The notes under the pieces were generated by a model. That model ran no database searches, had not been told where the DNA came from, and worked only from the letters and a program-made list of their open reading frames with translations. A DNA stretch of 35,124 nucleotides, taken from positions 1 through 35,124 of the forward strand of contig JADCES010000303.1 of assembly GCA_020250005.1 (NCBI GenBank), in the 5' to 3' direction. Shown one piece after another: positions 5,695-33,571 of this stretch. The stretch is from Roseomonas sp. (GTDB lineage: Bacteria > Pseudomonadota > Alphaproteobacteria > Acetobacterales > Acetobacteraceae). Made by a program: the position numbers and the translations under genes. Within the stretch, counting starts at the first letter, position 1. Each line of letters begins with the position of its first letter.

Positions 5695-8600
5695 TCATAG
5701 CCCGTTAGTAGTGGAGCGAGAGCCGAGGTAGTCCTGTAGGCGCATCAAACCCGAAGCATTGGCGGTGCCCTGTCCACCCGTACCGTTGGGACGGGGAGCC
5801 GCGCACCGTATTTCAGCGAAGGCACGAGGGCCAGGGTATCTGATCTCTACGCCCGCCGCGTTCAAAACTACAAATTCGTAAGTCACGAGCCGCAGTACCG
5901 GCTGTGTGATGCGTTGCGGCACGCCTGGCGGCGGATCGGCAAAGGATGTGCCAACGACGCGAACGGCGACGCGGCCACCAAGGCGAGTCACTTGCTCCCT
6001 GATCTGCCGAGCATAGCCTTCGATACCGTATACGCGTCCGCGGCTCTGGAGTTCATTATTGACGTGCTCCGAAGCTAACATCAGCCCGGTGCGCGCCTCG
6101 TCTCCGAAACCGGGACCGTAGAGATGCGCCCAGCGATACCCTTGCACATAGTGCGCGACGGCCGCCGGTAGCGTTCCGATACCAGGCATTGTGGTGTTGT
6201 AGTTTGGGGCAGCCGCGCGGTTCATGCCAGGACGCAGTTCTCCTTCGACGCCAGCGGTGACCACGCCACCGGGCCCAGTCGATGAGGCGACCCGGTTAAT
6301 GCCGCCAGTACCCGCGGTTTCTCCCGTTGGCGGCAGGCGCCAGACCAGCGGTGGATTGATGACGGCGCGTACAAACCAGCCGCCGTTCTGCTGATACGCA
6401 ACAAGCTCCCTAAGGCCGTAGCGTAGCTTAATGGCATCGTGCGCTCGCGTCAGCAGTTGGGCGGTTATGCCAGACCTCGGGAGCCTTGGTGCAATCGCCA
6501 AGGAAGCACGCGACGCAAGCCGCAAGCGCTCGGTTGGATCCTGCGGAACGCCCGCCCCCACCACCGCCCGCCCGAGCCTGCGCGCCTGCGCCACGATCCA
6601 GTCCACCAGCCGTTCCAGCGCCCGTTCTATCGGCCGGCGCACGCGGTCCAGGAAGCGCGTCACCACCTCGCCCACATTGCCAAGCCCAATCAGCCGCGCC
6701 AGGAAAGCAATCACCACCGGCAATAGCCGCGCCGCCGTGCGTTCCACCGCATTGGCGGCTTGGGTAATCACGCCGCCCGCAATGGCCGCGATGGAATCAA
6801 TCACCCCGGCCGCGACCTGCGCGATCTGTTGCAGCCGTTCAACCAGGAACATAATGGTGTTGTAGATCGCAAGGATCGCCTGAATGAAGGCGCCCGCGGG
6901 ATTGAGGCTCGCAATCAGCCGCGTGATCGCCGCCTGAACAATGCGGCTGCGCACGAAGCCCATGACTTGCTCAACCACCATATCGCGCAGATTGCCGACT
7001 GCCTCCACAATCATCTGCCAGGCCGCTGCCGGGCCTTCGGTCACCAGGCGGCGCACCATGTCAAACCCTTGTTCCAACCCGGCAACCGCCGTCTCTCCCA
7101 CCACGCGCACCAGCCGCAGCCGCACCGCCTGCCAAGTCAGGCCCAGCACGGACAGCACGAATTTCAGGATCTCGGAAAGGCTGAGCGCGGTTGGGATATG
7201 CACGCCCGTGCCCCCCATCGCGCCAGTCAGCCAGCCAATCAGCCCGGTGCGCAAATGATCAAGGATATTCGTGCCAAATTGCCGAAAGCCAGTCAGCGCC
7301 GCGCGTACCAGATTGCCGACAAAGCGAATGGGGTCGCGGATGATTGTCGCGAAAGCGCCCGCCGCCCGCTTCAGATAAGGTAGGATCGCAGGCGCAACGA
7401 CCTCAATAATGATTTCAAGCAGCCGCAGCACCTGCGCGCCTGCCCAGCCAAGGAACTGACCGACAAAGGCACCAAAGGTCCCGGCAATGCGACCAAAGGC
7501 CGCCATCGGCGCGACAAGATCGCCGATGGACAAGGAACGGAGCGTATCAAGGAAGCGCTGGGGAAGCTCTCGCACAAAGGCCAGAACGCCGGCCAAGGTG
7601 CCCTGGAACCAGGCCCAGGCCCGCGCCACCGCATTGCCGCGCTTGATGTTTTCCCACACCTCCTCCTGGCCGATCAGCTTCATGAAGCCACCGATCAGTG
7701 TCTCGGCATTGCGCGCCACCGCTTCGCCGGTGATCGGGTTGCGCCCAAGCACGGCGCAAAGCAGCTCCCAGGCGCGTGTGCGGCTGGCAAGCTCGGCCAG
7801 CGGCCGCAACACCGCGTCCCGCACGAAGGTTGCAATCCCTTCGGTCAGCGTGCCGATGAAGGCGCGCATGCGCGCGATGGGCTCCTCAATCAGGCGCCGA
7901 GCGCGATCAATCACCGCACCGGGGCTGACAATATCCAAGGGGCCAAGGCTGCGCAGGAAGGCCATCACCGCGCCGCCAATGGAACCAAACACACCGGCAA
8001 GCGTTGCCATCTGCTGGTCCACGAAATCCGCCACCCGATCCACAATCCCGTAGCGGTCCAGCGCAACGCGAATAACGGTACCGATCGGGTTCAGTTCCAG
8101 CATTGCGCGCAGCAGATTGGCGGTGCTGAAGGCCACTGCTTCACCGGTCAGCGGATCACGCTTAAGAATCAGGCTGGCCAGTCGATAGCCCGGGATTGCA
8201 TTGGCGCGTTCACGCACCCAACCAAGCGCTGTGCCGATGACATCGCCAATCGCGCCAACCACCGCGCCGGCCGCTCGGCGCAGGCCGTCGAACAGGAACA
8301 TCGGCCGCGTCCGAGTCCGGCCAGTGACCTCGAAGGATTCGCCGCGCCCAACCGCACCGGCGGCAGCCACCGCCTCGCGCTCCAGCCCGCCCGTGTCATC
8401 GCCCAGGCGTTGCACTGTCGCGCCACCCTGCTGCTGCAGGACATGGGCGACCTCATGCGCCATCACGCCAAGATCGGCGCCACTTTCCCTGGGGCCCAGG
8501 AAAATGCGCGGGCCGATCGCAAGCGCCCGCGCCCCGGCGGCCGCCACCGCCGCCCGCGCCGCCGCATCGCCATGGACGCGCACCGCGCCCAGATCAATGC

Positions 8601-8793
8601 CGAGGCTGCGTTCCAAGGGCGTGCGCACCGCGCCCGCCAGGGGCGCCCCCGCACCCGGCGAGCGCAGCGCAATCACTGAGGCACTTGGCAAACCGGCCAG
8701 TGACGGCGCTGATGCGCTTGGACGCAGAGAGGCGCGCGGCCGGCTCGAAGCCGGTGCGTGCCGCTGCGTTGCCTCGCTTACGGCGGCCTTCAT
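5695..8793 (-). CDS. DUF4157 eCIS-associated polymorphic toxin/effector
   Basis: A 1032-residue candidate cargo protein. Residues about 58-130 are a DUF4157 domain, a marker of eCIS-associated toxins, with a metalloprotease-like HEVAH at 113-117 and LERSLGIDLGAVRVHGD before it. Residues about 160-800 are long amphipathic and hydrophobic helices with an internal duplication: LILKRDPLTGEAVAF (about 208-222) and AVLGRNPITGEAVAR (about 347-361). The last 145 residues form a separate domain starting WAHLYGPGFGDEARTGLMLA at 888, with VNNELQ and IEGYARQIRE further on. This pattern resembles Ntox4/polymorphic toxin type 4 domains, a tentative match. The start overlaps the ATPase stop by ATGA, so it is translationally coupled to the particle genes. 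No obvious immunity gene follows. An alternative is that the helical part serves in packing or as a tape-measure substitute. Confidence 0.85.
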   Translation of the reverse strand: MKAAVSEATQRHAPASSRPRASLRPSASAPSLAGLPSASVIALRSPGAGAPLAGAVRTPLERSLGIDLGAVRVHGDAAARAAVAAAGARALAIGPRIFLGPRESGADLGVMAHEVAHVLQQQGGATVQRLGDDTGGLEREAVAAAGAVGRGESFEVTGRTRTRPMFLFDGLRRAAGAVVGAIGDVIGTALGWVRERANAIPGYRLASLILKRDPLTGEAVAFSTANLLRAMLELNPIGTVIRVALDRYGIVDRVADFVDQQMATLAGVFGSIGGAVMAFLRSLGPLDIVSPGAVIDRARRLIEEPIARMRAFIGTLTEGIATFVRDAVLRPLAELASRTRAWELLCAVLGRNPITGEAVARNAETLIGGFMKLIGQEEVWENIKRGNAVARAWAWFQGTLAGVLAFVRELPQRFLDTLRSLSIGDLVAPMAAFGRIAGTFGAFVGQFLGWAGAQVLRLLEIIIEVVAPAILPYLKRAAGAFATIIRDPIRFVGNLVRAALTGFRQFGTNILDHLRTGLIGWLTGAMGGTGVHIPTALSLSEILKFVLSVLGLTWQAVRLRLVRVVGETAVAGLEQGFDMVRRLVTEGPAAAWQMIVEAVGNLRDMVVEQVMGFVRSRIVQAAITRLIASLNPAGAFIQAILAIYNTIMFLVERLQQIAQVAAGVIDSIAAIAGGVITQAANAVERTAARLLPVVIAFLARLIGLGNVGEVVTRFLDRVRRPIERALERLVDWIVAQARRLGRAVVGAGVPQDPTERLRLASRASLAIAPRLPRSGITAQLLTRAHDAIKLRYGLRELVAYQQNGGWFVRAVINPPLVWRLPPTGETAGTGGINRVASSTGPGGVVTAGVEGELRPGMNRAAAPNYNTTMPGIGTLPAAVAHYVQGYRWAHLYGPGFGDEARTGLMLASEHVNNELQSRGRVYGIEGYARQIREQVTRLGGRVAVRVVGTSFADPPPGVPQRITQPVLRLVTYEFVVLNAAGVEIRYPGPRAFAEIRCAAPRPNGTGGQGTANASGLMRLQDYLGSRSTTNGL

Positions 8794-10817
8794 GGTGCCG
8801 CCCGCCGCCGCAACGGCGCTATCGCACCTTGCTTGCGGTATTCACGTAGAACCGCCGCTTCAAGCTCTGGCGCACCGATCAGCCGGCCGGCCTCCATCGC
8901 CAGCAGTGACGCATGCAGCACAACGTTGCGCAGCGCCCCGCCGGCCAAGGTGCAACGTGCCGCAAGCTCCGCGAGAAATTCCGGCGAAACCACATGGTCT
9001 TTCGGCAGGTGCAGCGCCAGGATACGGGCGCGTTCCGCCGCTTCGGGCAGCGGGAAATCAATCACCACATCCATGCGGCGCTGGAAGGCGCTATCGATGC
9101 GTTCAGCCGCATTGGTGGTAATGATGACCAGGCCTTCAAACGCCTCAAGCCGCTGCAACAGAAAGCTTGTTTCAAGATTGGCCCAGCGATCCTGCGCTGA
9201 GCCCACATTGGTCCGCCCGGCCATCAGGGCGTCGCCCTCGTCAAGCAGTAGCGCGACACCAAGGGATTCAGCGGCATCGAACAGGCGCTCAAGATTTTTT
9301 TCCGTCTCGCCGACATATTTATCCACAAGACTTGCCATCTCAGCGCGATAGAGATCCAAACCGACCTCCGCCGCCACCAGCCTTGCCCCCAGCGTCTTGC
9401 CGGTGCCGCTGGGTCCGCGGAACAGGGCGCGCACGCCGGGCGCGCCAGCGCCGAAAATTTTTGCAAGCGGCTCGGCAAAGCGCCAGCGTGCCGCAAGGCC
9501 ACGCAGCTCCGCCTCAGTCAGCTCGGGCACCGCCAGCGCGTTCAAATCCTCCATGTCAGGCAATGGCGGCATGCGACGTGCCAGACCATCCAGGGCCTGG
9601 CGATCCAGGGCGCGCGTCGCCTCCTGCAGGATAGCTGGTGTAGCGGGCTTGTCGCCAGCCAGTGCGCGGGCGAGTGCGGCGGCGCGTAGGATGCGCCCAC
9701 TTGCCATGCGCGGCCCAGCCTCGGCCGTCTCGCCACCAAGGCCGCGCGCCCAAAGCGCGCTGCGCAACGCCGCGAGCGGCAGCGGCAGCGTCACGGTCAG
9801 GGCCTGGGCGTCGCCGGCCAAGGCCACATGACCTTGGCCGCCAAGGGCAACACCAAGCGGATGGATCAGCGCTGGCGCCGGCGGAAGCTGCACTGCGGCG
9901 CCTTGGGTTGGTGCAGCCAGCAACCGTGGCATGGCGCCAAGCAGCGTCGCGACCGTGCCCGCCCGCCGCCATCGCGCTTCACCACCGGAACCCGGCACTG
10001 GCAGGTCCAGCACGCCTAATCCAAGTGCGCGCGCCACCGCCGCGATCACCGTGCGTCGCCCATTGAAGGGAACGCCCCGCACGAGTAGTGCCTGCACCCC
10101 GCCGCTGGCGAGCAGCGGCAGCGCTCGGTCAAGCGCGGCACGCGCCTCATCCGGGATCAGCAGCGCCTCCAGTGTTTGCGCCGTTTCGGCTGGCTGAAAG
10201 ACCAATGCCTCGCCCTCTGGCGGCTCGCCGCGCAGCGCAGGCCAGATCTCGGCTGGCGGCACCAGCGCGCGCTCGGCACGGCTGGGAGCATCGTCCGACC
10301 AGTCAATGAGACCGAGCGCCCGCAGCCGCCCGAGCAGCGCACCGCAGGCAGTGCTTGGTGAAAGTAATTCGGGGACCAGTGCGGGGGTAACACGCCGCAG
10401 CCCCGGCGCTCCCTGAAGCGCCTCCAGCATGCCACCGAAGCGGGTATCCTCATCCGGCAAGCCGCAGGTGGCGATCAGCACCAGCGCCTCATCCGCGAGG
10501 CCGGTGGCGCGTTGCAGGCGGCGCAATGGCAGCGTGTCTGGCGCGTCGCGCGCAAAGGCGCGGATCCCGGCGTCCCACTGATCCTGCGCGGTTTCGAGTG
10601 TCATACCATCCAGGCCGCGGGTCGCGATCTGATCAAGGTATCCCGCAAGAAAGGGGAAGCGCTCCAGCACTGCCTCGGCCGAGCCCGCAGCGCGCAAAGC
10701 AATGCCAACCAGACGCAACACTCCTGCAAGTTGGAACAGCATCAAATGCTGCGCCGCATCGCGCGGAATATCCGCCATGGGTCGCAGCGAATCCGAAAGC
10801 CCACCATGCGGCTTCAC
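8790..10817 (-). CDS. AAA+ ATPase, Afp15/Pvc15-like
   Basis: A 675-residue ATPase thought, from Afp15/Pvc15, to act in the cytoplasm during particle assembly or cargo loading. The C-terminal AAA+ module carries Walker A GPSGTGKT at 468-475, a pore-loop-like DKYVGETEKN stretch at 499-508, Walker B LLLDEGDAL at 523-531, sensor-1 TTN at 567-569, and paired arginines (QRRMD) at 579-583. The N-terminal half (about 230-360) contains LLVRGVPFNGRRT, a degenerate P-loop lacking the GK[TS] signature, as in other eCIS ATPases with an inactive first module. The start is set by a 4-base ATGA overlap with the upstream gene, and the stop overlaps the toxin start the same way. Its place beside the DUF4157 cargo matches other eCIS loci. 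Confidence 0.9.
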   Translation of the reverse strand: MKPHGGLSDSLRPMADIPRDAAQHLMLFQLAGVLRLVGIALRAAGSAEAVLERFPFLAGYLDQIATRGLDGMTLETAQDQWDAGIRAFARDAPDTLPLRRLQRATGLADEALVLIATCGLPDEDTRFGGMLEALQGAPGLRRVTPALVPELLSPSTACGALLGRLRALGLIDWSDDAPSRAERALVPPAEIWPALRGEPPEGEALVFQPAETAQTLEALLIPDEARAALDRALPLLASGGVQALLVRGVPFNGRRTVIAAVARALGLGVLDLPVPGSGGEARWRRAGTVATLLGAMPRLLAAPTQGAAVQLPPAPALIHPLGVALGGQGHVALAGDAQALTVTLPLPLAALRSALWARGLGGETAEAGPRMASGRILRAAALARALAGDKPATPAILQEATRALDRQALDGLARRMPPLPDMEDLNALAVPELTEAELRGLAARWRFAEPLAKIFGAGAPGVRALFRGPSGTGKTLGARLVAAEVGLDLYRAEMASLVDKYVGETEKNLERLFDAAESLGVALLLDEGDALMAGRTNVGSAQDRWANLETSFLLQRLEAFEGLVIITTNAAERIDSAFQRRMDVVIDFPLPEAAERARILALHLPKDHVVSPEFLAELAARCTLAGGALRNVVLHASLLAMEAGRLIGAPELEAAVLREYRKQGAIAPLRRRAAP

Positions 10818-12637
10818 GGCGGTGGGGCCAACATGGAAAAGTCAAAGCGTATGTCCAAGCCCGCAGCGGGAAGCCAACCAGGGTCGCGGTCCAGCCCAGC
10901 GCATCGCAAAGCGATTGGGTGCGCCGCCAAGTCAAACCCCGCAACAAGATTTGTCGCCGTGACACGAATACGCGCCGGCCGCGCCACCAGCCAAGCCAGC
11001 GCCTGCCGCGCCGGCACGCCCACCGCCGCTTCGATCCTTGCGGCAAGCACCGCCGCCATGATTTTCTGCCACCCGATCAGCGTCGCAGCTGAGGGCGCCG
11101 GCGGCGCCACGCTGCGCCGGGGCCGCTGGCGCAGGCGAAAACGCGCGAGCGATGCTTTGGCCTGGCTTGTTGGCACGTCCAATACCGGGATACCGGCTGG
11201 GTGCAGCAGGCGCACCCTTCCCCTGGCAGATTGCAAGCGCCACGGCCCAATGCCGCGCAGGCGCGGGATCCAGTCGGGCGAGGCCTGCCAGCCGCGTGGC
11301 GGGCGGAAGCCCTGCCCTGGCCGTTGATGAGGCGCGCGCCCGGCCAGCCTGGCCAGCAGCGCCCATATCGGGTCCGCGCGAAATCTGGCCCCGCAGGAAT
11401 TTTCGCCCATCAAGGCCAGCAAATCCCAGGGCGAAAGCGGCAGGCGGGGCGCTTGCGGCGCGGTGAAATCACCATAAAGCCGCATGGCCAGGAAGGCGTT
11501 CAACAGGAAAAGCAAGCCGCCAAAGCGGGTCTCAAGCAGCATGTCGGGCTGAGGCGCTGGCAGGGGCAAATCAGGTTCAATCCTGGCAGGGTCAGATATG
11601 GCTGCTGTGTTTGACGACCTCGCCCACGGCGGACCTTGCTCTGGCATCGGCACGGCCGGGCCCGTGAGGGGCAGGGCTGACGAAGCGCTGTCCATGGATG
11701 ACCATTCAGGGGATGATTGCTCATCATGCCTATGGGTCTGCGCCGACGCCCGCCTGCCGGTCTTCCCCGCTCCGGCCGGTGCAGACGCAGCATCCGCATA
11801 TCCCAAACCCGCTTCCGCCTTGGCCGCCGCGATACTGCGCGCGATCCCTTGGGCGAGGCGCGGCTCACGCGCGAGTGTCAGCGCCAGGACCAGTAGCCGC
11901 CATGGCGCATGGCCGCGCGGCAGGATGCTCGCCTCGGGCGCCAGTTCCCGCAAAGCCTCAGCCCCAGGGGTGGGCTGGAACCGTGGAACCCCCCAGCCGC
12001 CGGTAAGTGCTGCCGCCGGACCAGGCATTCGACGCCAGGCCGGCTTGCCGCTGAGTGCCACCGGCGTTGCGCGATCATTTGCTGCGGGCAGCGCAAGCCC
12101 GGCATGGCGCGCAAGCGCGTGCCATATTTCCTCTGCCGCCACCGGCCCCAGGCATTCGGCGACCAAGGCGGCCTCGCCCGTTGCGGCAAGCCGCTGGAAT
12201 ACCACCGGCACCAAGGTCAGATCGCGCCGCAGCGCATTGGCTAAGCCTGCCGCGTCCGGCGCAGGTGAGACACTCCGCCACCACCAGGATTGCGCAGCAA
12301 TGCCGCGCGCAACATCCCGCGCGAGGCAGGCGAGCAGTTCCGCCTGATCAGCGAACCATACGGCTGTGCAGGCTGCCGGCACAGGACCAAGCGCTGGGCG
12401 CGCGGCGCCGCCTCCCGCCGCTTCAATCCGTGCCGCGACGCCTTGCGCCCACCGCCTGGCTGCCATGGGATCAACCGGCCCACGTGGGGCTGGTAATGCC
12501 AGGCTGCGCAGGTGAAGGATCGCCGGCGGTGATGGCCCAATTGGGTTCAGGCCCGCAAGCCAAGCCGGCAGCGCAACACCCATGCCTGCCGAAGGCACGA
12601 CCGCGCGCCGCACTGCAAGGGATGCGGCCAAACTCAC
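10814..12637 (-). CDS. eCIS-associated protein of unknown function, 607 aa
   Basis: I do not recognise this family. The protein is rich in alanine, proline and arginine. It has an N-terminal part with tryptophan-rich segments (QSWWWRSVSPA), a low-complexity, probably disordered middle (about residues 285-350, RRASAQTHRHDEQSSPEWSS), and a more ordered C-terminal half (DLLALMGENSCGARFRADPI, then GIGPWRLQSARGRVRLLHPA and WQKIMAAVLAARIEAAVG). No signal peptide or clear membrane helix is visible. It is joined to both neighbours by ATGA overlaps, lying between the fibre-like protein and the ATPase. Afp/PVC loci place the tape-measure gene (Afp14) in this slot, but this protein is not the long coiled helical chain expected of one. 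It may be an assembly factor or a lineage-specific structural part. Confidence 0.55.
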   Translation of the reverse strand: MSLAASLAVRRAVVPSAGMGVALPAWLAGLNPIGPSPPAILHLRSLALPAPRGPVDPMAARRWAQGVAARIEAAGGGAARPALGPVPAACTAVWFADQAELLACLARDVARGIAAQSWWWRSVSPAPDAAGLANALRRDLTLVPVVFQRLAATGEAALVAECLGPVAAEEIWHALARHAGLALPAANDRATPVALSGKPAWRRMPGPAAALTGGWGVPRFQPTPGAEALRELAPEASILPRGHAPWRLLVLALTLAREPRLAQGIARSIAAAKAEAGLGYADAASAPAGAGKTGRRASAQTHRHDEQSSPEWSSMDSASSALPLTGPAVPMPEQGPPWARSSNTAAISDPARIEPDLPLPAPQPDMLLETRFGGLLFLLNAFLAMRLYGDFTAPQAPRLPLSPWDLLALMGENSCGARFRADPIWALLARLAGRAPHQRPGQGFRPPRGWQASPDWIPRLRGIGPWRLQSARGRVRLLHPAGIPVLDVPTSQAKASLARFRLRQRPRRSVAPPAPSAATLIGWQKIMAAVLAARIEAAVGVPARQALAWLVARPARIRVTATNLVAGFDLAAHPIALRCAGLDRDPGWLPAAGLDIRFDFSMLAPPP

Positions 12638-17545: not shown

Positions 17546-17567
17546 CGGGTATGCTCCTCGGCGGGAA

Positions 17568-24886: not shown

Positions 24887-25575
24887 CAGATATTCCCCGC
24901 ACCAGGTGTATAGGTGGAGCTGATCACCGTATTGCTGATCACCGTATCGGCCTGCACCACGCCGCTGAAACGCGACATGCCGGAACTAACCGAGACCATG
25001 CCGGCCGAGATTTCCACAGTGGACGCGCTGATGGTCAACTTTGCGCTTGCCGTCAGGGTGATGCCGGCAGGTGCAAGCTCAATCGAATTGCCGTTGGAAT
25101 CTGCAATCTTGACGCCACCGGGCCCGTCCTTGAGGGTGATTTTCTGGCCACCTGGTGTTTCGCAGACGAATTGCTCACGCCCATCACTGTCATCAAGCGT
25201 GACCTTCACGCCATTGCGCGACCTGATCATTTTCGTCCTGTTCGACCGATCGGGGCGCGTTGGCGGCGCATCCCGGCCATTCCACAAGCCCCCAATCACT
25301 ACGGGCAAGCGCGGATCGCCCCCCTGAAAGATCACCAGCACCTCATCGCCCGGATCAGGCATAAAAAGGCTGCCGCGATTATTGCCGGCAAAAAGCGTTG
25401 CGGTGCGCGCCCAAGCTTCGTAGCCTGCGCCATTGGCATCCGGCACACCGGGTAGCGCAACGCGGATGCGTGCCTGACCATCCGGATCTTCAATATCGCG
25501 CACAATGGCGGGATAGGCGCCAAACCAGAAGGCGCTGTCGGGGCGGGGGGGAAGCGGATCGGCGTCATACGGCAT
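24883..25575 (-). CDS. gpV/gp5-type spike protein (OB fold plus beta-helix)
   Basis: A 230-residue spike protein that would form the trimeric needle under the tube. Residues about 13-85 are a gpV-like OB fold: FWFGAYPAIVRDIEDPDGQA, RIRVALPGV and GYEAWARTATLFAGNNRGSL, ending LVIFQGGDPRLPVVIGGLWN. The second half has short glycine-separated strands (KITLKDGPGGVKIADSNGN, IELAPAGITLTASAKLTISA) typical of VgrG/gp5 triple beta-helices. The ATG at 25575 is chosen over 25653 because GAGGAA lies eight bases upstream and it follows the hub stop by ten bases; the longer frame would overlap the hub gene. No PAAR tip domain is fused or encoded nearby. Confidence 0.88.
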   Translation of the reverse strand: MPYDADPLPPRPDSAFWFGAYPAIVRDIEDPDGQARIRVALPGVPDANGAGYEAWARTATLFAGNNRGSLFMPDPGDEVLVIFQGGDPRLPVVIGGLWNGRDAPPTRPDRSNRTKMIRSRNGVKVTLDDSDGREQFVCETPGGQKITLKDGPGGVKIADSNGNSIELAPAGITLTASAKLTISASTVEISAGMVSVSSGMSRFSGVVQADTVISNTVISSTYTPGAGNIW

Positions 25576-25585
25576 GCGGCATTCC

Positions 25586-26653: not shown

Positions 26654-26812
26654 CTAATCCGCCATCAGGCGCAGCCGCCGCCGCACGCGTGCTGCAATCC
26701 GCGCTTCGATCGCTTCCACATCCGGGGCGCGTGGTGCCTCTGCTGGTGTGGCAATTGGCGCTGCGGCGGGCGCTTCCGGTGTCAGGGTCAGTTCATCAAT
26801 CACAACGGCCAT
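26654..26812 (-). CDS. Small DUF5908-like eCIS protein, 52 aa (Afp6/Pvc6-like)
   Basis: A short frame fills the space between the Afp7-like and hub genes: MAVVIDELTLTPEAPAAAPI, an alanine/proline-rich linker, and a basic helix (IEARIAARVRRRLRLMAD). The form matches the short DUF5908 proteins of eCIS loci, which start with a strand like MPIEIRELVI, have a variable linker, and end in an arginine-rich helix. It begins four bases after the previous stop and ends three bases before the hub ATG, so it fits the operon exactly. Function is unknown; in PVC/Afp the equivalent small gene lies among the tube and baseplate genes. Confidence 0.72.
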   Translation of the reverse strand: MAVVIDELTLTPEAPAAAPIATPAEAPRAPDVEAIEARIAARVRRRLRLMAD

Positions 26813-26816
26813 GGCG

Positions 26817-27545
26817 TCACATCCCCAGATCGATCAGGGTTCCGGTGCCAATGCGGCGCGGATCTTCAATCCCGTTGCGCGCAGCGATTTCCTGCCAGCG
26901 GGCGCCGAGCCCTGCGGCATCGGCCAGTTGCGGCAGGCCCAGCCCAGCGGGTGTTGGCGTAAGCGGGCGTGTGCCAAGCAGACCGCCCGGCCCCTGCGCC
27001 GCGCTGCCGAAGCCGCCGCCGCCCGCCGCCGCAGCCTGTCCATAAGCGAAGGCCGTGATTTTTTGCTGCGACAAATTAATGGTAACGCTCGCGCGGAGCG
27101 GCCTTCCCTCGGGCGAGAAGAACTCCAGGCTTTCCTCCATGCCGTCCACCAGACCGTCGAATTGGAAGCTGCCCCAAAGGAAGCGAATGCCAGGCGGCAC
27201 GAATTGATTGCCTTCAGCCTTTGGTGTGATGAAATAGGCGACGCCTTCAGTCAGCTTGCGCACATCATCGGTCGCGGGTGCGCCTTCAGGCAGCGGCGCG
27301 GTCGCGTCGAACCAAAGCGCCAATGAAAGTTTTGTCGTTCCAGCTCCAACGAACTGACGCGCGGCTGTTCCGCTGCGATCCGACCCGCCCCCGCCTTCCG
27401 CCGTGACCAGTTGGTTGGCGTAGGTCACCTTCAGGGTTTCCGGATTGAACTGAACAATAACCTTCTTGCCGCGCGGCAATTCCTCGGACGTACCGGGCCG
27501 AAGCTCACGCAGTTCGGCTTTGGCAAGGCGGACGGCATCAACCAT
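26817..27545 (-). CDS. Afp7-like CIS tube-initiator protein with C-terminal LysM-like domain
   Basis: A 242-residue protein. Residues about 15-185 match the CIS_tube/gp53-like N-terminal domain: KKVIVQFNPETLKVTYANQL, then LSLALWFDATAPLPEGA, VRKLTEGVAYFITPK, PPGIRFLWGSFQFDGLVDGM, and EESLEFFSPEGRPLRASVTI. The C-terminus (LPQLADAAGLGARWQEIAAR, then NGIEDPRRIGTGTLIDL) is LysM-like. Afp7/Pvc7 adapt the tube to the spike hub at the baseplate. A glycine-rich linker (about residues 195-207) separates the domains. It starts two bases after the tube 2 stop. In some phages the LysM part binds the tail; binding to peptidoglycan is not implied. Confidence 0.88.
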   Translation of the reverse strand: MVDAVRLAKAELRELRPGTSEELPRGKKVIVQFNPETLKVTYANQLVTAEGGGGSDRSGTAARQFVGAGTTKLSLALWFDATAPLPEGAPATDDVRKLTEGVAYFITPKAEGNQFVPPGIRFLWGSFQFDGLVDGMEESLEFFSPEGRPLRASVTINLSQQKITAFAYGQAAAAGGGGFGSAAQGPGGLLGTRPLTPTPAGLGLPQLADAAGLGARWQEIAARNGIEDPRRIGTGTLIDLGM

Positions 27546-27547: not shown

Positions 27548-28024
27548 TCAGCCCCCCTCCCGCCTGAGGGAAAGGCGTTCATAGGCGATTTGCAATTCCT
27601 CAATCGCCACACCGCCTTCCCGTGCATTCATGGGCGGGGCTTTTAGTTTTGCCGGCAGACAGCGTTCCAGTAGAAAACGTGCCCGCTTGGTGCGGCCATC
27701 AGCGGCAAGCAAGACCACTTCTGCTTCCGCGCGCAAACCAGGTTCAGCTACCGTACGATCAACCCACTCCCAAAGATCTGCGCTTTCCGTCATGCCGCGG
27801 CGCAGCGTCAGCACGCCAAAGGCAAGCGGCCCAGCCAGACGGATTTGCCTTCCATTGGCGCCACCTTCGCGAATGGTCTTGATTTCCATTGTCTGTTCCA
27901 GCCCATCACATTCCGCGAAGGCCGCGTGACATAGCGCGGGGGAAAGACCTGGTACGCTGATTTCCACCGCGAAGTTGAAGGCGGTGAAAGGCGTGCGGAT
28001 GGTTTCGGCGGCTGGGCTTGCCAT
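27548..28024 (-). CDS. Inner tube protein 2 (gp19-like)
   Basis: A 158-residue tail tube protein of the T4 gp19-like/Afp1-Afp5 family. Family marks are FNFAVEISVPGLSPALCHAA at the start, then FAECDGLEQTMEIKTIREGG, LTLRRGMTESADLWEWVDRT, and a C-terminal APPMNAREGGVAIEELQIAY plus ERL, the strand that completes the hexameric ring. It should form hexameric rings inside the sheath, perhaps the baseplate-proximal rings because it is next to the Afp7-like gene (as Afp5). It starts three bases after the sheath 2 stop. It differs clearly from tube 1. Confidence 0.92.
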   Translation of the reverse strand: MASPAAETIRTPFTAFNFAVEISVPGLSPALCHAAFAECDGLEQTMEIKTIREGGANGRQIRLAGPLAFGVLTLRRGMTESADLWEWVDRTVAEPGLRAEAEVVLLAADGRTKRARFLLERCLPAKLKAPPMNAREGGVAIEELQIAYERLSLRREGG

Positions 28025-28027: not shown

Positions 28028-29650
28028 TCAACTCTCCTCAAGTGTCAGGCGATCACCTGTACGCAACAGCCGCACCAACAGGAAGGCGAGCGGGCGAGAG
28101 GGGGCGACGCGCAATTCAATCACCAATTGTCCTTTCTCCGCGCCAGTGGCATGTACCGTGACTTGGAAAGCCTCGGCGCTACGTGCTGGGGAAAAAGCGC
28201 CGCGGGCAAAAAGTTCTGCCATCAGCGCCTCAAAGCGTCGCTGCAGGGCACGATGCAGGACTTCGCCATTCGGTTCAAAGATCAACTCCGCGCCGTCACG
28301 GAGAACAATCCGTCGCAGCAGGGTCAGCAATCGGCGCACGCCAATCGGCCTGAGATCTTCATCAATCGCCAAGGTCGTCGCCGACAGGGGCATGATGCCG
28401 CGCGCGGTTGGCCGCAAGACATTGATGCCAGCCTGTTGCAACGCATTTAGCCGTTTGGCGTTGAGTGCGCGCGGCACAAGAGCGATGGCATTTTGCCAAG
28501 CCTCGCCGGCTGGCGCCATCCATGCGCCGCGGGAGATGGTGCGTCGGGCGATCGCGCCACAGGCCGGACCATCTGGTGCGACTTCGCCCTGACCCGCAAA
28601 GGCGACCCAGGGATGATACAGCGCGCCGAAGGAAAGTGCCGGCGCTTCAATGTCTTTAAGGTCACCAAGCAGCGCGGCATGGCTGATAGCCGCCGCCTCG
28701 TCATAGTGGCGCGGCAAGGAAAGCAGCGCGAAAGCATCCCCGCGCGCGGCACAGAGCCGGAGCAAAGCGCGATGCAATGCAAGCATGGACGCACTCTGGA
28801 AAGCATGCGCCGGCACTTCGCGCCGTAAACTATGCGCGGTGCCGGGCAGCAGCACGCCGTCGGACCAGATGCTGGCGCGATCACCATCGCGCGCACGCAC
28901 CCGGGCATAGCGTGGCGTGGAAACAGCGGGCAGAAGCAGCGCGTTCACCGCACCAGCCAGTACGGTCTTGGCATCCGACCAAGCCGGATCCTCGGCCAGC
29001 TGCAGTTCGAAGCTGGATGCGCCAGGCGCCGACCATTCCAGGCGACATGGCGCTGTCAAGGCGAGCCGAGGCTTCGATAGGTGGGCCAGGTCACACATCC
29101 GGAAAAGCGACGGTGATGCCGGGGTGGGGGCCGCCGAAGCCAGTGGCGCAGGCGGTGTTGGTGGCTGCTCCTCGGTCCAGCCGGCCAGCACGGCATCAGG
29201 CAGCGCGAGCAACGAGACCTCTTCGACTGTCGCCAGCGCGTGGAGCCCTTCAAGTTGACGCGCGCCATCAAGCGCATTTGCGACCCCACCTATTGTCGCC
29301 TCAAGCAGTAGCGGGTCTGCAAGTGCTGCCGCATTGAAGCTATTCGGCACGGGTACGCCCACAACATGGCAACGCCGGCCACCCTGCGCGAAGAAGGTGC
29401 GCACTGCGGGCCCAAGCAGGCCTTTGACCGGTGCACCGGTAGCATCGAGACAAAGCGAGACATCGGCACCGAACATGCGCTCGAAGCCTGCCGCATCTTC
29501 GATCACAACGGGCATATAGCGCTGATCGGCCGGGCGTGAATCCTGCCCCACGAAGCCGCAAAAGCCGGCAACATCCATGCGCGGCCAATAATCGGGCGCT
29601 GGCTTTGGTTCCTGGAAATAGAGCCCGGGAAGCCGGGCATCCGCCCTCAT
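28028..29650 (-). CDS. Tail sheath protein 2 with a Fn3-like insertion
   Basis: A 540-residue sheath protein. The N-terminus (LPGLYFQEPKPAPDYWPRMD, then VAGFCGFVGQ) and the C-terminal domain (ISRGAWMAPAGEAWQNAIAL, QAGINVLRPTARGIMPLSAT, then RRLLTLLRRIVLRDGAELIF, EPNGEVLHRAL) are those of contractile sheath proteins. Unlike sheath 1, it carries an extra segment at about 193-270: PRLALTAPCRLEWSAPGASS, FELQLAEDP, YARVRARDGDRASIWSDGVL, which looks like a fibronectin type III or Ig-like fold placed between the N- and C-terminal sheath domains, after a proline/alanine-rich linker (162-181). The start at 29650 lies four bases after the tube 1 stop and gives the canonical N-terminus; the longer frame to 29707 overlaps the tube gene. 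Confidence 0.88.
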   Translation of the reverse strand: MRADARLPGLYFQEPKPAPDYWPRMDVAGFCGFVGQDSRPADQRYMPVVIEDAAGFERMFGADVSLCLDATGAPVKGLLGPAVRTFFAQGGRRCHVVGVPVPNSFNAAALADPLLLEATIGGVANALDGARQLEGLHALATVEEVSLLALPDAVLAGWTEEQPPTPPAPLASAAPTPASPSLFRMCDLAHLSKPRLALTAPCRLEWSAPGASSFELQLAEDPAWSDAKTVLAGAVNALLLPAVSTPRYARVRARDGDRASIWSDGVLLPGTAHSLRREVPAHAFQSASMLALHRALLRLCAARGDAFALLSLPRHYDEAAAISHAALLGDLKDIEAPALSFGALYHPWVAFAGQGEVAPDGPACGAIARRTISRGAWMAPAGEAWQNAIALVPRALNAKRLNALQQAGINVLRPTARGIMPLSATTLAIDEDLRPIGVRRLLTLLRRIVLRDGAELIFEPNGEVLHRALQRRFEALMAELFARGAFSPARSAEAFQVTVHATGAEKGQLVIELRVAPSRPLAFLLVRLLRTGDRLTLEES

Positions 29651-29654
29651 GCCC

Positions 29655-30107
29655 TTACTCCATCTCCAGCCGCTCATAGGCGAGGACAAGTTCCTCCATC
29701 GCCACATCGGTGCCCTTGCCGTTCATCGGGCCGGAAGTGTGCTTGATGATGCGCGCGCGCAGCAGGCGCCAAGTCTGCACGATCTGGGTATGGTCCTCAT
29801 TCTGGAGATGGATTTGCACGGTGCGCAGAGCCGCCTGATCACCATTGCGGATTTGGTTGAGCCACCGATAAAGATTGAGCGAGCCAATTACCCCGCGCTT
29901 CATCGTAACATCGGTCGCCTTGTTCATCCCGGTGATCTTGCGGACGGCGTTTTCCTTCTCATTCCCGTTGCGGTATTCGGAGACGGTTACCTCCATCCCG
30001 ATACCGCTTACCTCCTGGAACCCGGCTTCGGGCCCATCGGTTACCCCGTCGCCGAGATCAACGAGGAAATTGAACTGGACATAAGGTCTTTCGCGCAGCA
30101 CAGCCAT
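29655..30107 (-). CDS. Inner tube protein 1 (gp19-like)
   Basis: A 150-residue tail tube protein, the probable main subunit of the inner tube. It shows the standard eCIS pattern: ERPYVQFNFLVDLGDGVTDG, FQEVSGIGMEVTVSEYRNGN, KENAVRKITGMNKATDVTMK RG-type strand, then LNLYRWLNQIRNG, and MEELVLAYERLEME at the end. Hexamers of this protein stack within the sheath. It lies between the two sheath genes, 18 bases after sheath 1, which pairs each sheath with a tube gene. Its close match to the family consensus contrasts with the divergent tube 2. Confidence 0.95.
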   Translation of the reverse strand: MAVLRERPYVQFNFLVDLGDGVTDGPEAGFQEVSGIGMEVTVSEYRNGNEKENAVRKITGMNKATDVTMKRGVIGSLNLYRWLNQIRNGDQAALRTVQIHLQNEDHTQIVQTWRLLRARIIKHTSGPMNGKGTDVAMEELVLAYERLEME

Positions 30108-30125: not shown

Positions 30126-32171
30126 TCAGCCGGGCGGCCGCTGGTCAGCGGTCCATTGTCCGATGCGGAAGATCACGAATTCCGCCGGCCGCAGCGCCGC
30201 GACGCCGACCAGACAGACGAGCCTTCCATTGTCGAGATCATTTTGGGTCATGGTGCTTGGGAAGCCGCACCGCACGAAGAAGGCCTTTTCCGGCTTGTCA
30301 CCGAGCAGCGCGCCCTGCATCCATTCATTCAGCAGGAAATCTTCGACCGTCCGACGAACATTGTCCCAGAGCGCCTTTCCGTTCGGTTCAAACACCGCCC
30401 ATTGCGTACCGATATCGATTGAGCGTTCAAGATAGGCGAAGTAGCGCCTAAGGTTGACATATTTCCATTCCGGGTCGGAACTGATAGTTCGCGCGCCCCA
30501 GAGCCGATAGCCGCGGCCTTCAAAATAGCGGAAGCAATTGATGCCAAGCGGATTGAGGACTTCCTGCTGCGCCTTATTCAGCAGTGTCTCAAAACCATTG
30601 GCGAGTGTCACCACCTCATTCGCGGGGGCCTTCCAGACCGCCCGTGTGATGTCGTTACGCGCATAGATGCCGCAGACAAAGCCGGAGGGTGGCAGGTTGA
30701 TCTCGGCGCGCGTCACCGGGTCCAGCACTGTGACCCAAGGATAGTAAAGCGCGGCATACTTGCTGTCGAGGCGAGCGCGGAAGTTACGCACTTCCGCGAT
30801 GGTGTGCTTTTCTGCACTGTCTAGCACCGCAATGCGGTAACGCATGCGCTCGGCATGGCCGATCAGCAGACGGGTTATCGCATCCGCGTTGTCGGTGAAG
30901 GAGGCGTAGCGCCAGGTGCTGCCCGGTGCGGCAACAATCGCGATATCCTCGATCGACTCGAGTTGCTTGAGGCCGGTCCGGTAACCGAGTGTGTCATCGG
31001 CGCGGCCTTCATATTCGCGCGCCCCCGGCCGCAGCCCGTCATGGCCGCCTTCGAGATCGCCTTCCACCGCTACGCCGCGCGCAAGGCGAGCCCCTGGTCC
31101 GATCTCTCGCGTACGTTCGATTTGGTTGGGGCGCAAATGGTCAGTTGGCGTTGCGCCGAACAATGCCGCCAGCGTGGTAAGGCCATTAGGTGTCTGCGCC
31201 GCATTGCGCGTGACCACAATGGGGAGCGAACGTGACTGCGCAAGTGAGGCTGGTTCATCGGCGAAGGTATCGAATAGGTTATCTGGCAAGCCGGCCAGCC
31301 GATGTCCGGGATCCGGGGCGAGATCAGTCCAGGTTCCAAGATCCCGCCCTTCCTTCGTGCGCAACGTGAGCGAGAGCGTGACCACGCGCAATTCTGCCGA
31401 GGAGCCGTCGCCGCTTAGCAAAGCGCTGAGTGGGACCGCACCAGGTGGTGAGGCGGGGCCATTGTCGAAAAGCCATTCCCCAGTGACCGAATCTCGCCGC
31501 GCGAGGCAGAATGTCCCCTCTGGTGGCGGCGGCTTGGCCATGCCGGCCGTCGGTCTTTCGTACAACCAAACAAGGTCATTCTCGGCCAGCGCGCCGAAGG
31601 TGAAGCGACTGGCGCCGGTTGTCGGATCGGCGCTGCGGCCGAGCAGATTGGCGCGGCTGCGCAGCGTGATGCGCACCCGCAGATTGCCCTGCGCGCCCGG
31701 AAAGCGTGAGCGGATACCAAGGCCGACCATCGTCACCTTGCTTGGCAGCGGTGGGCTCGCATCCAGCGCCATGTCCACGAAGCGCAATTCGGTCCCGATA
31801 CCATGGCCATGCTCGTACCGACCCGTCACGAGTGGCGTATTGAAATTCGCCGGCGGATAGCTGCCAGTGCTTGTGTTTGGACGGAATACGCGGGTTACAT
31901 AAAGCCGTCTTCCCTGCTCGGCGAAGAAGGCGCGCGCCGCATGCCAAAGAAAGTTCGGCGATTCGGTTCCGTCCGCGTAAACCAGCGGGGCGCCATCGCC
32001 GTAGATCCTCTCAAATTCTTCAAGGCTCGTAATCACGTCCGGATCGACAGTGACTGGGCCGAAGCGTGCTGGACCGATAAACCCCGTGGTAGTGGTCCCC
32101 ACACCTTCAATTGATTTGGCGCGGAAGGAAACTTCTTCCACATAGACACCGGGGGCGAGATATTCTGGCAT
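30126..32171 (-). CDS. Tail sheath protein 1
   Basis: A 681-residue contractile sheath protein, the likely major sheath. The N-terminus (PEYLAPGVYVEEVSFRAKSI, EGVGTTTTGFIGPARFGPV) and ITSLEEFERIYGDG are diagnostic, and the C-terminal domain has VWKAPANEVVTLANGFETLL, NPLGINCFRYFEGRGYRLWG, SIDIGTQWAVFEPNGKALWD, and ends RPAEFVIFRIGQWTAD. The middle (about 110-330) holds variable inserted domains that would face outward. Sheath strands interlock through the extended N- and C-termini and contract on triggering. A GGAG ribosome-binding site lies seven or eight bases before the ATG. Longer than sheath 2, mostly through the outer insertion. Confidence 0.96.
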   Translation of the reverse strand: MPEYLAPGVYVEEVSFRAKSIEGVGTTTTGFIGPARFGPVTVDPDVITSLEEFERIYGDGAPLVYADGTESPNFLWHAARAFFAEQGRRLYVTRVFRPNTSTGSYPPANFNTPLVTGRYEHGHGIGTELRFVDMALDASPPLPSKVTMVGLGIRSRFPGAQGNLRVRITLRSRANLLGRSADPTTGASRFTFGALAENDLVWLYERPTAGMAKPPPPEGTFCLARRDSVTGEWLFDNGPASPPGAVPLSALLSGDGSSAELRVVTLSLTLRTKEGRDLGTWTDLAPDPGHRLAGLPDNLFDTFADEPASLAQSRSLPIVVTRNAAQTPNGLTTLAALFGATPTDHLRPNQIERTREIGPGARLARGVAVEGDLEGGHDGLRPGAREYEGRADDTLGYRTGLKQLESIEDIAIVAAPGSTWRYASFTDNADAITRLLIGHAERMRYRIAVLDSAEKHTIAEVRNFRARLDSKYAALYYPWVTVLDPVTRAEINLPPSGFVCGIYARNDITRAVWKAPANEVVTLANGFETLLNKAQQEVLNPLGINCFRYFEGRGYRLWGARTISSDPEWKYVNLRRYFAYLERSIDIGTQWAVFEPNGKALWDNVRRTVEDFLLNEWMQGALLGDKPEKAFFVRCGFPSTMTQNDLDNGRLVCLVGVAALRPAEFVIFRIGQWTADQRPPG

Positions 32172-32186
32172 TGGTATCTCCAGCGC

Positions 32187-32969
32187 TCAGGGGTGTACGA
32201 AAAGGTTGGAAAGATCAGTCGGGCTGCCGTGGCGGAGCGTCGCCTCGGTAATCGGGGTGCCATCAGCCATACGAAGCTGCGCAACGGGCTGGCTGAGCGT
32301 ATTGCAGAGATCAGGCAGCAGCATGCGCGGGTCCGTGGGATCGCGTGGCTGTTCTGCCGCGAAGCCCGCGCGCCAGCGCAGTTCCAGTCGGCGTGTCCAG
32401 GACTGCCCGGCAAGGACGCCAGGCTTCGGTTCAGGCCAGGGCAGGACCAACAGGACGCGCCCATTCTCGTCGGCGAAGCTCTGCGTCAATAGTTGCGTCC
32501 CCTCAAAAAGACTGAGCACGGCGCAGCGCGCAGGCCGTTGCGCGGCTTCAAGCAGGGTTACCCTCAGCGTTGCTTCAGTCCCGCTGAGTGACGCTGTTGG
32601 GCTCAGCATCAGGGGCAGGAACGGTCCAGCAACGCAGGCGGGCAACATCCAGCCCTTGGCTGAAGGTGCCGTGGCAGCGAAGGAGAAGGCAAGGAAGCGC
32701 CCAGCCGGATCGGTGACCAGGATGCGTGTCCGGTCGCGTGGTCCTGGCAGAAGATGCGCCACCATGGCGCCGCCACCATTCGGCTTTGCCTCAACTACCT
32801 GACGGCCATGGACCAAGCGTACGCGCGGGGGGGTGGACATCAATGGTCGGCCAGATCCGGCGTCTACAAAGCGTAGCCCAAACGCGGCCTGTAGACTGAT
32901 TGTTTCCATAGATATCTTATGGAAACCCGGCGGCAGGCCTTGTGGGTCAAGCAGTTGGGCGCCGCTCAT
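32187..32969 (-). CDS. eCIS-associated beta-rich protein of unknown function, 260 aa
   Basis: I do not recognise a named family. The protein has an N-terminal beta-sandwich-like part: ISLQAAFGLRFVDAGSGRPL, PPRVRLVHGRQVVEAKPNGG, then GPRDRTRILVTDPAGRFLAF, resembling carboxypeptidase-regulatory or Ig-like folds. A second such part follows (GTEATLRVTLLEAAQRPARC, then TQSFADENGRVLLVLPWPEP). The C-terminus has a helical ARMLLPDL-type segment (DPRMLLPDLCNTLSQPVAQL). No signal peptide or membrane helix is seen. It is joined to the cap gene by an ATGA overlap and precedes sheath 1 by 15 bases. A role at the head-distal end of the particle with the cap is inferred from position only. Confidence 0.6.
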   Translation of the reverse strand: MSGAQLLDPQGLPPGFHKISMETISLQAAFGLRFVDAGSGRPLMSTPPRVRLVHGRQVVEAKPNGGGAMVAHLLPGPRDRTRILVTDPAGRFLAFSFAATAPSAKGWMLPACVAGPFLPLMLSPTASLSGTEATLRVTLLEAAQRPARCAVLSLFEGTQLLTQSFADENGRVLLVLPWPEPKPGVLAGQSWTRRLELRWRAGFAAEQPRDPTDPRMLLPDLCNTLSQPVAQLRMADGTPITEATLRHGSPTDLSNLFVHP

Positions 32970-33571
32970 GTCTCGGACCTTGGCGATAAAAAATCAAATC
33001 GACGTTCAGTCACGGGGTCACCTTCGGCCATGGGGATATCACTGTCTATGGCAATGCCGCGCGCCAGATAGAGAGCCGAGGATTGCAGCCGCGGCTTCAG
33101 CTTATCCCAAATCGCCAACCAATCGGCGACCACGGGGGCATCCTGGACCAGTTCCACCTGTTCATCGGCCGCAAAGACATCATTGATATCCAGTCTGCGA
33201 TTAAGCTCGGCTGCTGGCAGCACAGCCATATCGGCCAGTCGGCGCACCAGCCAGCCAAGCATGCGCTGCTGTTTTTCGACATTATTGGCCCAAGGCGTAA
33301 TCAGATAATGCAGATCAAGCGGAAGCGAGGGACGAAAACGACGTCCATCTGTGGCAAGGCGTGGTCCGCGCTGGCGCAGGGTACCGTTGGGAGTAACGCA
33401 CCACAAACATAGCGTCACGCCATCCGATGCACGTGCTGCCTGCGTTTCGTCGAATACCGCCGGATGGACAAGTGAAAATTCTAGTCGACCAAACAGGCTG
33501 CGCGGATAGCTATCCTCAAGCAGGCCGAGGATCGCACGGCTGACGGCAGCGATGGCGTTGAAACTAGCCAT
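32966..33571 (-). CDS. DUF4255 tail terminator/cap protein, Afp16/Pvc16-like
   Basis: A 201-residue protein of the DUF4255 (Pvc16_N) family, whose members cap the tube and sheath at the end away from the baseplate. The pattern is clear: FNAIAAVSRAILGLLEDSYP at the start, FSLVHPAVFDETQAARASDG, VTLCLWCVTPNGTLRQR, then LPLDLHYLITPWANNVEKQQ, RMLGWLVRRLADMAVLPAAE and the terminal DWLAIWDKLKPRLQSSALYL region. It is the first gene of the operon. The ribosome-binding site is weak (a G-rich run about 16 bases upstream). It lies 37 bases from the predicted sigma-54 start. Placing the cap gene first, before sheath and tube, differs from Afp/PVC, where it is last. Confidence 0.92.
   Translation of the reverse strand: MASFNAIAAVSRAILGLLEDSYPRSLFGRLEFSLVHPAVFDETQAARASDGVTLCLWCVTPNGTLRQRGPRLATDGRRFRPSLPLDLHYLITPWANNVEKQQRMLGWLVRRLADMAVLPAAELNRRLDINDVFAADEQVELVQDAPVVADWLAIWDKLKPRLQSSALYLARGIAIDSDIPMAEGDPVTERRFDFLSPRSET

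What the first reader, a model, noticed from the sequence alone, without database searches (positions are those of the whole stretch)
5695..33571. Complete minus-strand eCIS operon, with the cap gene first, joined end to end by overlaps
About nineteen genes run without a break: cap, beta protein, sheath, tube, sheath, tube, Afp7-like, DUF5908-like, hub, spike, membrane protein, gp25, gp6-like, Afp12-like, two fibre-like proteins, unknown, ATPase, toxin. Most junctions are ATGA or TGATG overlaps or gaps under 25 bases. Compared with Afp/PVC, the cap is first, hub and spike are split, and at least three proteins (260, 607 and 667 aa) have no recognised family. This looks like a distinct eCIS subtype.
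Basis: partly seen in the sequence, partly recalled or inferred. Interest (0 to 1): 0.8.

Follow-up and report, generated by a model that had tools for sequence, protein, structure and literature searches.

The report
Phage-tail-like toxin syringe, probable sigma-54 control
A bacterium whose nearest named relative is a Roseomonas carries a complete phage-tail-like toxin syringe from a little-studied branch of a known family, with a probable sigma-54 switch beside it and a conserved protein that may tie the syringe to a membrane.

Summary
Confirmed: the minus strand (5695-33571) encodes a complete contractile injection system of 19 tightly joined genes, cap first, hub and spike split. It is not unique: the same order recurs, as far as each reaches, in 40 fetched loci from several phyla. 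The three 'unknown' proteins are lineage-wide: the 667-aa in 38 of 38 loci reaching its place, the 260-aa in 21 of 21, the 607-aa in 17 of 17. So this is a distinct lineage, nearest by sheath, among identified solved ones, to the Streptomyces coelicolor CIS.

My searches found no paper on this. (2) The 667-aa protein ends in a conserved hydrophobic helix: a candidate membrane anchor. (3) The effector is a DUF4157 + tape-measure-like carrier with a variable tip (Ntox4 here), the design of the known effector Tme.

Operon control, docking, lumen loading and toxicity are inferred. A new variant of a known kind.

The parts
33812..34960 (+). Sigma-54 activator (AAA+ and Fis-type HTH, no receiver domain found), divergent from the operon; true start perhaps an ATG at 33923 or 33974
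   Evidence: Sigma54_activat 2.6e-61, HTH_8 9.5e-5; homologue within about 1.3 kb upstream of the cap in 10 of 21 relatives
33757..33774 (.). Palindrome TGTGCCG-N4-CGGCACA, candidate activator site about 123-140 nt upstream of the -24/-12 site
   Evidence: 7-base arms; about 0.15 palindromes of 7 or more expected in 400 bp by shuffling, and not shared by relatives: weak
33619..33634 (-). Sigma-54 -24/-12 promoter-like site, 1 mismatch, 47 nt before the cap ATG
32966..33571 (-). Cap (Pvc16/Afp16-like), first gene
   Evidence: Pvc16_N 4.4e-29; PF14065 match in 22 of 22 relatives' genomes; upstream of the sheath, same strand, in the 21 upstream stretches fetched
32187..32969 (-). 260-aa lineage protein, second gene, partner of the cap by position
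   Evidence: HMM hit in 21 of 21 upstream loci; no PDB relative
30126..32171 (-). Sheath A
   Evidence: Phage_sheath_1 3.8e-20; S. coelicolor CIS sheath 5.6e-99
29655..30107 (-). Tube A
   Evidence: Phage_T4_gp19 7.6e-33
28028..29707 (-). Sheath B
   Evidence: phrog_17610 tail sheath 9.2e-24; Pfam below cut-off
27548..28024 (-). Tube B
   Evidence: Phage_T4_gp19 6.2e-29
26817..27545 (-). Afp7-like tube/spike adaptor
   Evidence: CIS_tube 2.3e-25
26654..26812 (-). 52-aa small protein between Afp7-like and hub
   Evidence: small ORF at this place in 33 of 33 relatives tested, 29 by eye with the shared start pattern; no control
25586..26650 (-). Hub (GPD-like), separate from spike
   Evidence: Phage_GPD 2.6e-9
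24883..25653 (-). Spike (gpV-like)
   Evidence: Phage_base_V 3.1e-22
22883..24886 (-). 667-aa lineage protein with C-terminal hydrophobic helix (residues 623-655): candidate membrane-docking protein
   Evidence: HMM in 38 of 38 relatives reaching the place; strongest hydrophobic stretch 36-50 residues from the C-terminus in 36 of 36 aligned rows; AlphaFold2 pLDDT 79; no PDB fold match
22500..22937 (-). Baseplate gp25
   Evidence: GPW_gp25 3.2e-20
20240..22498 (-). Baseplate wedge, Afp11-like
   Evidence: TIGR02243 3.8e-69; Baseplate_J 3.3e-7
17568..20240 (-). Baseplate wedge, Afp12-like
   Evidence: Tail_P2_I 1e-7; CIS12_fam 1.8e-31, below cut-off
15491..17602 (-). Fibre 1 with collagen-like GPAGPAG repeats
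   Evidence: phrog_366 tail fibre 1.8e-4; CIS13_fam 0.002, below cut-off; repeats seen in the sequence
12634..15477 (-). Fibre 2
   Evidence: CIS13_fam N-terminal 1.5e-8, below cut-off; no PHROGs hit
10814..12637 (-). 607-aa lineage protein before the ATPase
   Evidence: HMM in 17 of 17 downstream loci; AlphaFold2 pLDDT 74; no fold match
8790..10817 (-). AAA+ ATPase (Afp15-like position)
   Evidence: AAA 1.2e-22
5695..8793 (-). Effector: eCIS_core (DUF4157, 51-124) + tape-measure-like carrier (to about residue 800) + Ntox4 tip (884-957)
3475..5613 (-). Methyltransferase + glycosyltransferase, possibly the last gene of the locus
   Evidence: Methyltransf_24 2.3e-19, Glycos_transf_2 1e-16; relative near the effector in 5 of 17 downstream stretches
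1019..1849 (-). Phage-type endolysin downstream, possible release factor
   Evidence: phrog_181 1.9e-68; 81% identical gene downstream of another eCIS type in congener G020

Best explanation
A horizontally acquired, complete contractile injection system of an uncharacterised lineage, expressed as one operon from a sigma-54 promoter under an activator encoded next to it. Particles assemble in the cytoplasm: cap, two sheaths, two tubes, split hub/spike, baseplate and two fibres. The AAA+ ATPase loads an effector whose DUF4157 + tape-measure-like carrier lies in the tube lumen and ends in an Ntox4 domain. The 667-aa protein, with its C-terminal hydrophobic helix, docks the baseplate on the cytoplasmic membrane. 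Shown here by sequence: the gene set, the lineage-wide conservation, the pairing of promoter-like site and activator, the carrier's tape-measure similarity. Inferred: single transcript, activation, lumen loading, docking, toxicity.
For: Core families. Same order in relatives of several phyla. Transfer: in the Afp11 tree the window lies outside the 13-row clade (100/100) whose named members are alphaproteobacteria, although its nearest named record is a Roseomonas MAG, and the 607-aa gene is in 1 of 34 congeners and 0 of 24 other genomes of the class. Sigma-54: a site with GG/GC core and at most 2 mismatches within 1000 nt of the cap in 8 of 11 loci with a nearby activator, 0 of 11 without (Fisher p 0.001, which ignores that the loci are related); 7 of the 8 have at most 1 mismatch, where 0.11 are expected over all 22 from the background rate; rpoN in the window's genome and in all 10 activator-bearing relatives. 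667-aa protein: C-terminal hydrophobic stretch in 36 of 36 rows, and a like segment in the relative from Rhodococcus opacus, a monoderm. Effector: all 4 PHROGs hits are tape-measure families, best 1.5e-6, and 2.3e-9 in the Caulobacter relative; identity to 12 relatives is 42-55% at residues 451-700 and 5-12% from 801 on.
Against: No expression, imaging or localisation data. 3 of the 11 activator-bearing loci lack a recognisable site, and 11 of 22 loci have no nearby activator in the stretch held (only 1.55 kb upstream in L071), so sigma-54 control is not lineage-wide. rpoN is common anyway (19 of 22 genomes). Two of four effectors tested gave no tape-measure hit; two of six relatives' effectors gave no eCIS_core hit; 3 of 17 downstream stretches gave no effector hit. 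The hydrophobic helix could instead enter the target; in R. opacus it is followed by about 110 residues, so it is not always a tail anchor. Two fibre genes and an endolysin fit release. No structural match for the 667- or 607-aa models.
Confidence: 0.7

Rival explanations
1. A classical released eCIS: particles leave by cell lysis (endolysin at 1019-1849) and bind target cells with the two fibres; the 667-aa protein is a baseplate part whose hydrophobic end is shielded or enters the target membrane on firing.
For: Two fibre-like genes; endolysin downstream here and an 81% identical one downstream of another eCIS type in a congener; the 667-aa gene sits among baseplate genes.
Against: Of the other loci held, the endolysin was hit in one only, though many loci do not reach so far; a strong C-terminal hydrophobic stretch in 36 of 36 rows, with no second one over the threshold in 35 of 36, fits a single-pass membrane protein.
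Confidence: 0.33
2. The activator and the -24/-12 site control something else, such as the activator's own gene, and the operon runs from another promoter.
For: In the window the activator is divergent, so both could share the region.
Against: In the 10 relatives the activator is on the cap's strand, and each of the 7 sites found in them lies between it and the cap and points at the cap; in congener G033 the activator is at the far end of its eCIS, while the only site within 1 mismatch in the roughly 38 kb held lies 328 nt before the cap.
Confidence: 0.12
3. A silent or decaying locus in a metagenome bin, possibly mis-binned.
For: Near-identical fragments (99.7-100%) in another species' bin with 8% contamination; an IS remnant and a truncated membrane-protein gene downstream.
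Against: All 19 ORFs are open; the downstream stretch is 75% identical over 1.6 kb to a congener's, so the contig fits the genus.
Confidence: 0.08

Closest known systems
Streptomyces coelicolor CIS (CISSc, subtype IId; PDB 9GTP/9GTR/9GTS)
   Same: Best identified solved sheath (5.6e-99) and the only PDB match of Afp11 (1.8e-38); a membrane protein, CisA, is encoded in the locus (passages)
   Different: Its hub chain is 643 aa, so hub and spike are fused; reported to lack conventional fibres; NCBIfam CIS12/CIS13 cut-offs are far from reached here; CisA has a C-terminal domain after its membrane segment (passages of PMC12237407 and PMC10066040)
Streptomyces davawensis CIS and its effector Tme (PMC11126660)
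   Same: Effector with DUF4157 + tape-measure-like region + C-terminal nuclease; sheath clade reported to span Proteobacteria, Chloroflexota and Actinobacteria (passages and one section)
   Different: It has a PAAR-like tip, and tme is upstream of the baseplate genes; no sequence of it was compared here
CIS cluster on a Rhodococcus opacus plasmid (NZ_CP095404.2)
   Same: Cap first, 305-aa hypothetical second, two sheaths, two tubes, 58-aa ORF, split hub/spike, 552-aa relative of the 667-aa protein (1.4e-25), 493-aa relative of the 607-aa (8.4e-14)
   Different: DUF4157 genes lie inside the cluster; the 305-aa protein is not hit by the 260-aa HMM; deep branch in the Afp11 tree
Afp / PVC (subtype Ia)
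   Same: Homologous sheath, hub and other core parts
   Different: Cap last and PAAR tip (both recalled); hub chains of 529-538 aa, so hub and spike fused
Anabaena thylakoid-anchored CIS (PMC8894136)
   Same: Membrane anchoring of a CIS
   Different: Anchoring there is by Cis12 and Cis13 extensions, not by a separate protein of this kind (passages)

Membership tests
[quoted passage not shown]
   By Pfam: Pvc16_N cap, sheath, tube x2, CIS_tube, GPD, gpV, gp25, Baseplate_J, Tail_P2_I, AAA, eCIS_core; the authors' own HMMs were not at hand; criterion from passages
eCIS | No capsid, terminase or other phage head genes beside it | tested here: met
   None hit among the window products scanned; one endolysin
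eCIS | Released from the cell as free particles | not testable with these tools
   Needs imaging of cells and supernatant
Subtype I (Afp/PVC) | Fused hub-spike | tested here: not met
   Two genes here and in 36 of 36 relatives with both; the seven solved chains matched are 529-643 aa
Subtype I (Afp/PVC) | PAAR tip (Afp10) | tested here: not met
   No PAAR hit in any of the 19 products
Subtype IId (CISSc) | NCBIfam CIS12 and CIS13 cut-offs reached | tested here: not met
   109.6 of 860 bits and 34.3 of 370 bits
Subtype IId (CISSc) | Sheath phylogeny inside IId | tested here: inconclusive
   CISSc sheath is the best PDB match (the second best, 9ezm, 2.7e-97, was not identified); no tree with reference sheaths was built
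Tme-type effector | DUF4157 + tape-measure-like region + C-terminal toxin domain | tested here: met
   eCIS_core 1.9e-18 and Ntox4 3e-10; PHROGs tape measure 1.5e-6; not all relatives' effectors meet it
Tme-type effector | Sits in the particle and is ejected | not testable with these tools
   Needs purified particles
Sigma-54-dependent operon | -24/-12 site, activator gene and rpoN in the genome | tested here: met
Sigma-54-dependent operon | Loss of transcription without rpoN or the activator | not testable with these tools
   Needs a deletion strain
CisA | Sequence homology of the 667-aa protein to CisA | not tested
   No CisA sequence was at hand; the profile has no significant PDB hit

The most novel reading that the evidence does not exclude
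This lineage is an alarm-fired, membrane-docked injector: a stress or envelope signal acts through a dedicated sigma-54 activator to switch on the operon; the 667-aa protein is a further, separate solution to docking a CIS on the producer's own cytoplasmic membrane; and the effector is itself the ruler, so a particle cannot be built to length without its toxin.
Probability: 0.3. Interest if true: 0.82.

Novelty: new variant of a known kind. Interest (0 to 1): 0.6.

Why it matters
How eCIS operons are switched on is little studied as far as my reading shows: the conserved regulator that I found named is a LuxR/GerE type next to 25.8% of loci (PMC8213781, passages and one section). A sigma-54 switch names its genes and predicts a start site, so it can be tested directly. 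A lineage-wide candidate docking protein would help decide which CISs act from inside the producer and which are released. A tape-measure-like carrier with interchangeable tips would explain how one lineage can change toxins while keeping its loading signal.

Tried and rejected
Prophage: rejected, no head genes hit. Unique system: rejected by 40 related loci. Known fold for the 667- or 607-aa protein: no PDB sequence match at E below 0.1 and no Foldseek match at E 0.001. 607-aa protein as tape measure by position: not favoured, the model is globular with a long low-confidence stretch. Conserved activator binding site: the window palindrome is not shared by relatives. Sigma-70 promoters and terminators: at chance level. 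Sigma-54 as a general eCIS feature: not supported. Of 37 cap loci from 398 Pseudomonadota (own included) and 247 Acidobacteriota genomes, my HMM placed the cap in 26; among these a nearby activator was seen in 2, both with the 260-aa protein (one, L140, is a relative already counted), and a site with at most 1 mismatch within 1000 nt in 1 (at -662). The 667-aa profile hit 2 of 248 other Pseudomonadota, 0 of 295 other Actinomycetota and nothing in phages. Literature: five terms together, at least two required, gave 450 papers, 15 listed, none of the 15 with 'contractile injection system'; 'contractile injection system' with sigma-54 gave 3 papers, with RpoN 6, judged by listing except passages of one; none appears to describe sigma-54 control of an eCIS. 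A search for phage tail-like systems with enhancer-binding proteins gave nothing on it in the 12 of 153 listed. In two eCIS reviews a word search finds no 'sigma', 'rpoN' or 'promoter'.

Rows dropped: alignment A1 holds 35 of 38 relatives (L005 near-identical, L031 short, L041 lost in my start-codon script); A2 holds 23 of the 24 relatives (L089, a second copy of L030's gene, left out); A3 holds the 7 relatives (8). The effector profile uses 12 of the 14 downstream loci with an effector hit. The tree lacks loci whose Afp11 ORF was not 601-899 aa, among them one activator-free locus, L036. In one search some cap starts were too long; the scan was repeated with corrected starts, and the counts here are.


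Full report
What was checked. The window is one contig of a 4.03-Mb, 325-contig assembly; the nearest named record is a Roseomonas MAG, 99% identical in protein and 99.7% in DNA over 5,098 bases. Family searches identify 15 of the 19 as parts of a contractile injection system; the 260-, 607- and 667-aa products and the 52-aa ORF have no family. The second sheath passes only in PHROGs, and the fibres match weakly. No head genes were hit nearby.

It is a lineage, not a singleton. A genome scan with Afp11 returned 40 loci, one of them the Roseomonas near-copy. As far as each reaches, tblastn shows the same order. PF14065 caps were found in 22 of 22 relatives' genomes examined, and in the 21 upstream stretches fetched the cap precedes the sheath on the same strand. 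Hub and spike are separate ORFs in 36 of 36 loci with both, whereas the seven solved chains that the hub matches are 529-643 aa long, as for fused hub-spikes. HMMs of the three unknown proteins hit 38 of 38 loci reaching the 667-aa place, 21 of 21 upstream loci (260 aa) and 17 of 17 downstream loci (607 aa). They hit none of four congeneric eCIS loci; those stretches cover the 667-aa place in three of the four, and the 607-aa place was held only for G033. A more distant member lies in G099 and another on a Rhodococcus opacus plasmid. An Afp11 tree of 40 rows puts the window outside a 13-row clade (100/100) whose named members are alphaproteobacteria, with no well-supported sister. Only 1 of 34 congeners and 0 of 24 other genomes of the class have the 607-aa gene; the one has near-identical DNA on two short contigs, which may be cross-binning. 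I read the pattern as horizontal transfer. Caps of any eCIS were found in 5 of 35 genomes of the genus, own included.

Regulation. A sigma-54 activator gene lies divergent from the cap (33812-34960), and a -24/-12 site 47 nt before the cap. Over the whole window the loose pattern is no more common than chance (16 found, 23 expected), so position and comparison carry the argument. Ten of 21 relatives have an activator homologue within about 1.3 kb upstream of the cap, on its strand. With corrected cap starts, a site with GG/GC core and at most 2 mismatches lies within 1000 nt in 8 of 11 activator loci and 0 of 11 others (Fisher p 0.001, which ignores relatedness). Seven of the 8 have at most one mismatch, where 0.11 are expected over the 22 loci from 7 hits in 1,421,536 strand-bases of mostly coding DNA. 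The activator loci fall into several branches of the tree, and the label needs 3 changes. rpoN is in the window's genome and in all ten activator-bearing relatives, but also in 8 of the 11 others. Two congeneric eCIS loci without the lineage proteins also have a site before the cap: G033 (1 mismatch, 328 nt, with a 56% identical activator at the far end of its locus) and G031 (no mismatch, 45 nt; contig cut); G003 has none, and G020's cap could not be placed by my HMM. In a wider sample the activator next to the cap was seen only in lineage members. My searches found no paper on it.

The 667-aa protein. AlphaFold2 (36 rows, pLDDT 79) gives an alpha/beta N-terminal part, a helical middle and one C-terminal helix, 623-655. 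The strongest hydrophobic stretch lies 36-50 residues from the C-terminus in 36 of 36 rows, and 35 have no other stretch over the threshold further upstream. Its consensus (GMICSLSIPIITICALILLMIIV) is among the best conserved parts of the protein. In R. opacus the segment is followed by about 110 residues. This fits a membrane-docking protein, as CisA is proposed to be in S. coelicolor (passages) and the Cis13 membrane segment is in Anabaena (passages), but no homology to either was shown.

The effector. An effector was hit in 14 of 17 downstream stretches. The part alignable by tblastn runs from about residue 45 to 814, with one relative reaching 938. Identity to 12 relatives is 42-55% in bins from 451 to 700 and 5-12% from 801 on. 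Tips differ: Ntox4 here, an Endonuclea_NS_2 match below the cut-off in a Sphingomonas, an APOBEC-like match just below the cut-off in a Thermoanaerobaculia locus. eCIS_core was hit in 4 of 6 relatives' effectors scanned. The carrier matches tape-measure families here (1.5e-6) and in Caulobacter (2.3e-9), and in neither of two others. This is the Tme design of S. davawensis (passages). That it also sets the particle's length is my inference from the lack of another tape-measure hit.

Edges. A methyltransferase/glycosyltransferase gene follows the effector here, and relatives of it lie near the effector in 5 of 17 downstream stretches. Further on lie a truncated membrane-protein gene, an IS remnant and an endolysin; in congener G020 a 558-aa membrane-protein gene and an 81% identical endolysin follow the effector of a different eCIS. 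This may be a release module, or a chromosomal site at which eCIS types are exchanged.

Verdict. It is a new variant of a known kind. The sigma-54 switch and the 667-aa protein are the parts most worth testing.

Noticed in passing
window 340-1914 and L107:15756-17329: Endolysin and neighbouring DNA 75% identical to the stretch downstream of a different eCIS type in congener G020: an eCIS exchange site or a shared lysis module. The endolysin is single-copy in the window's genome.
   Followed up: partly
window 2610-3256: IS-type DDE transposase remnant; the 145-aa ORF on the other strand resembles the first 66 residues of a 558-aa membrane protein of the congener, so that gene appears truncated here.
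   Followed up: partly
   Followed up: partly
L004:18442-21710, L008:18097-21654, L010:17582-20924: At least 9 of 21 loci examined carry two more genes between fibre 2 and the 607-aa gene, of about 390-450 and 615-726 aa. By eye two of the longer ones start like signal peptides, and one ends in an outer-membrane beta-barrel. The window lacks both genes.
   Followed up: partly
G000:C226:127-606: A second Phage_sheath_1 gene on another contig of the same genome.
   Followed up: no
G034:C63 and G034:C223: Two short contigs of another species' bin, 99.7-100% identical to the window: recent transfer or cross-binning.
   Followed up: partly
L079 and L076, downstream of the effector: Repeated glycosyltransferase modules after the effector in Acidobacteriota loci.
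   Followed up: no
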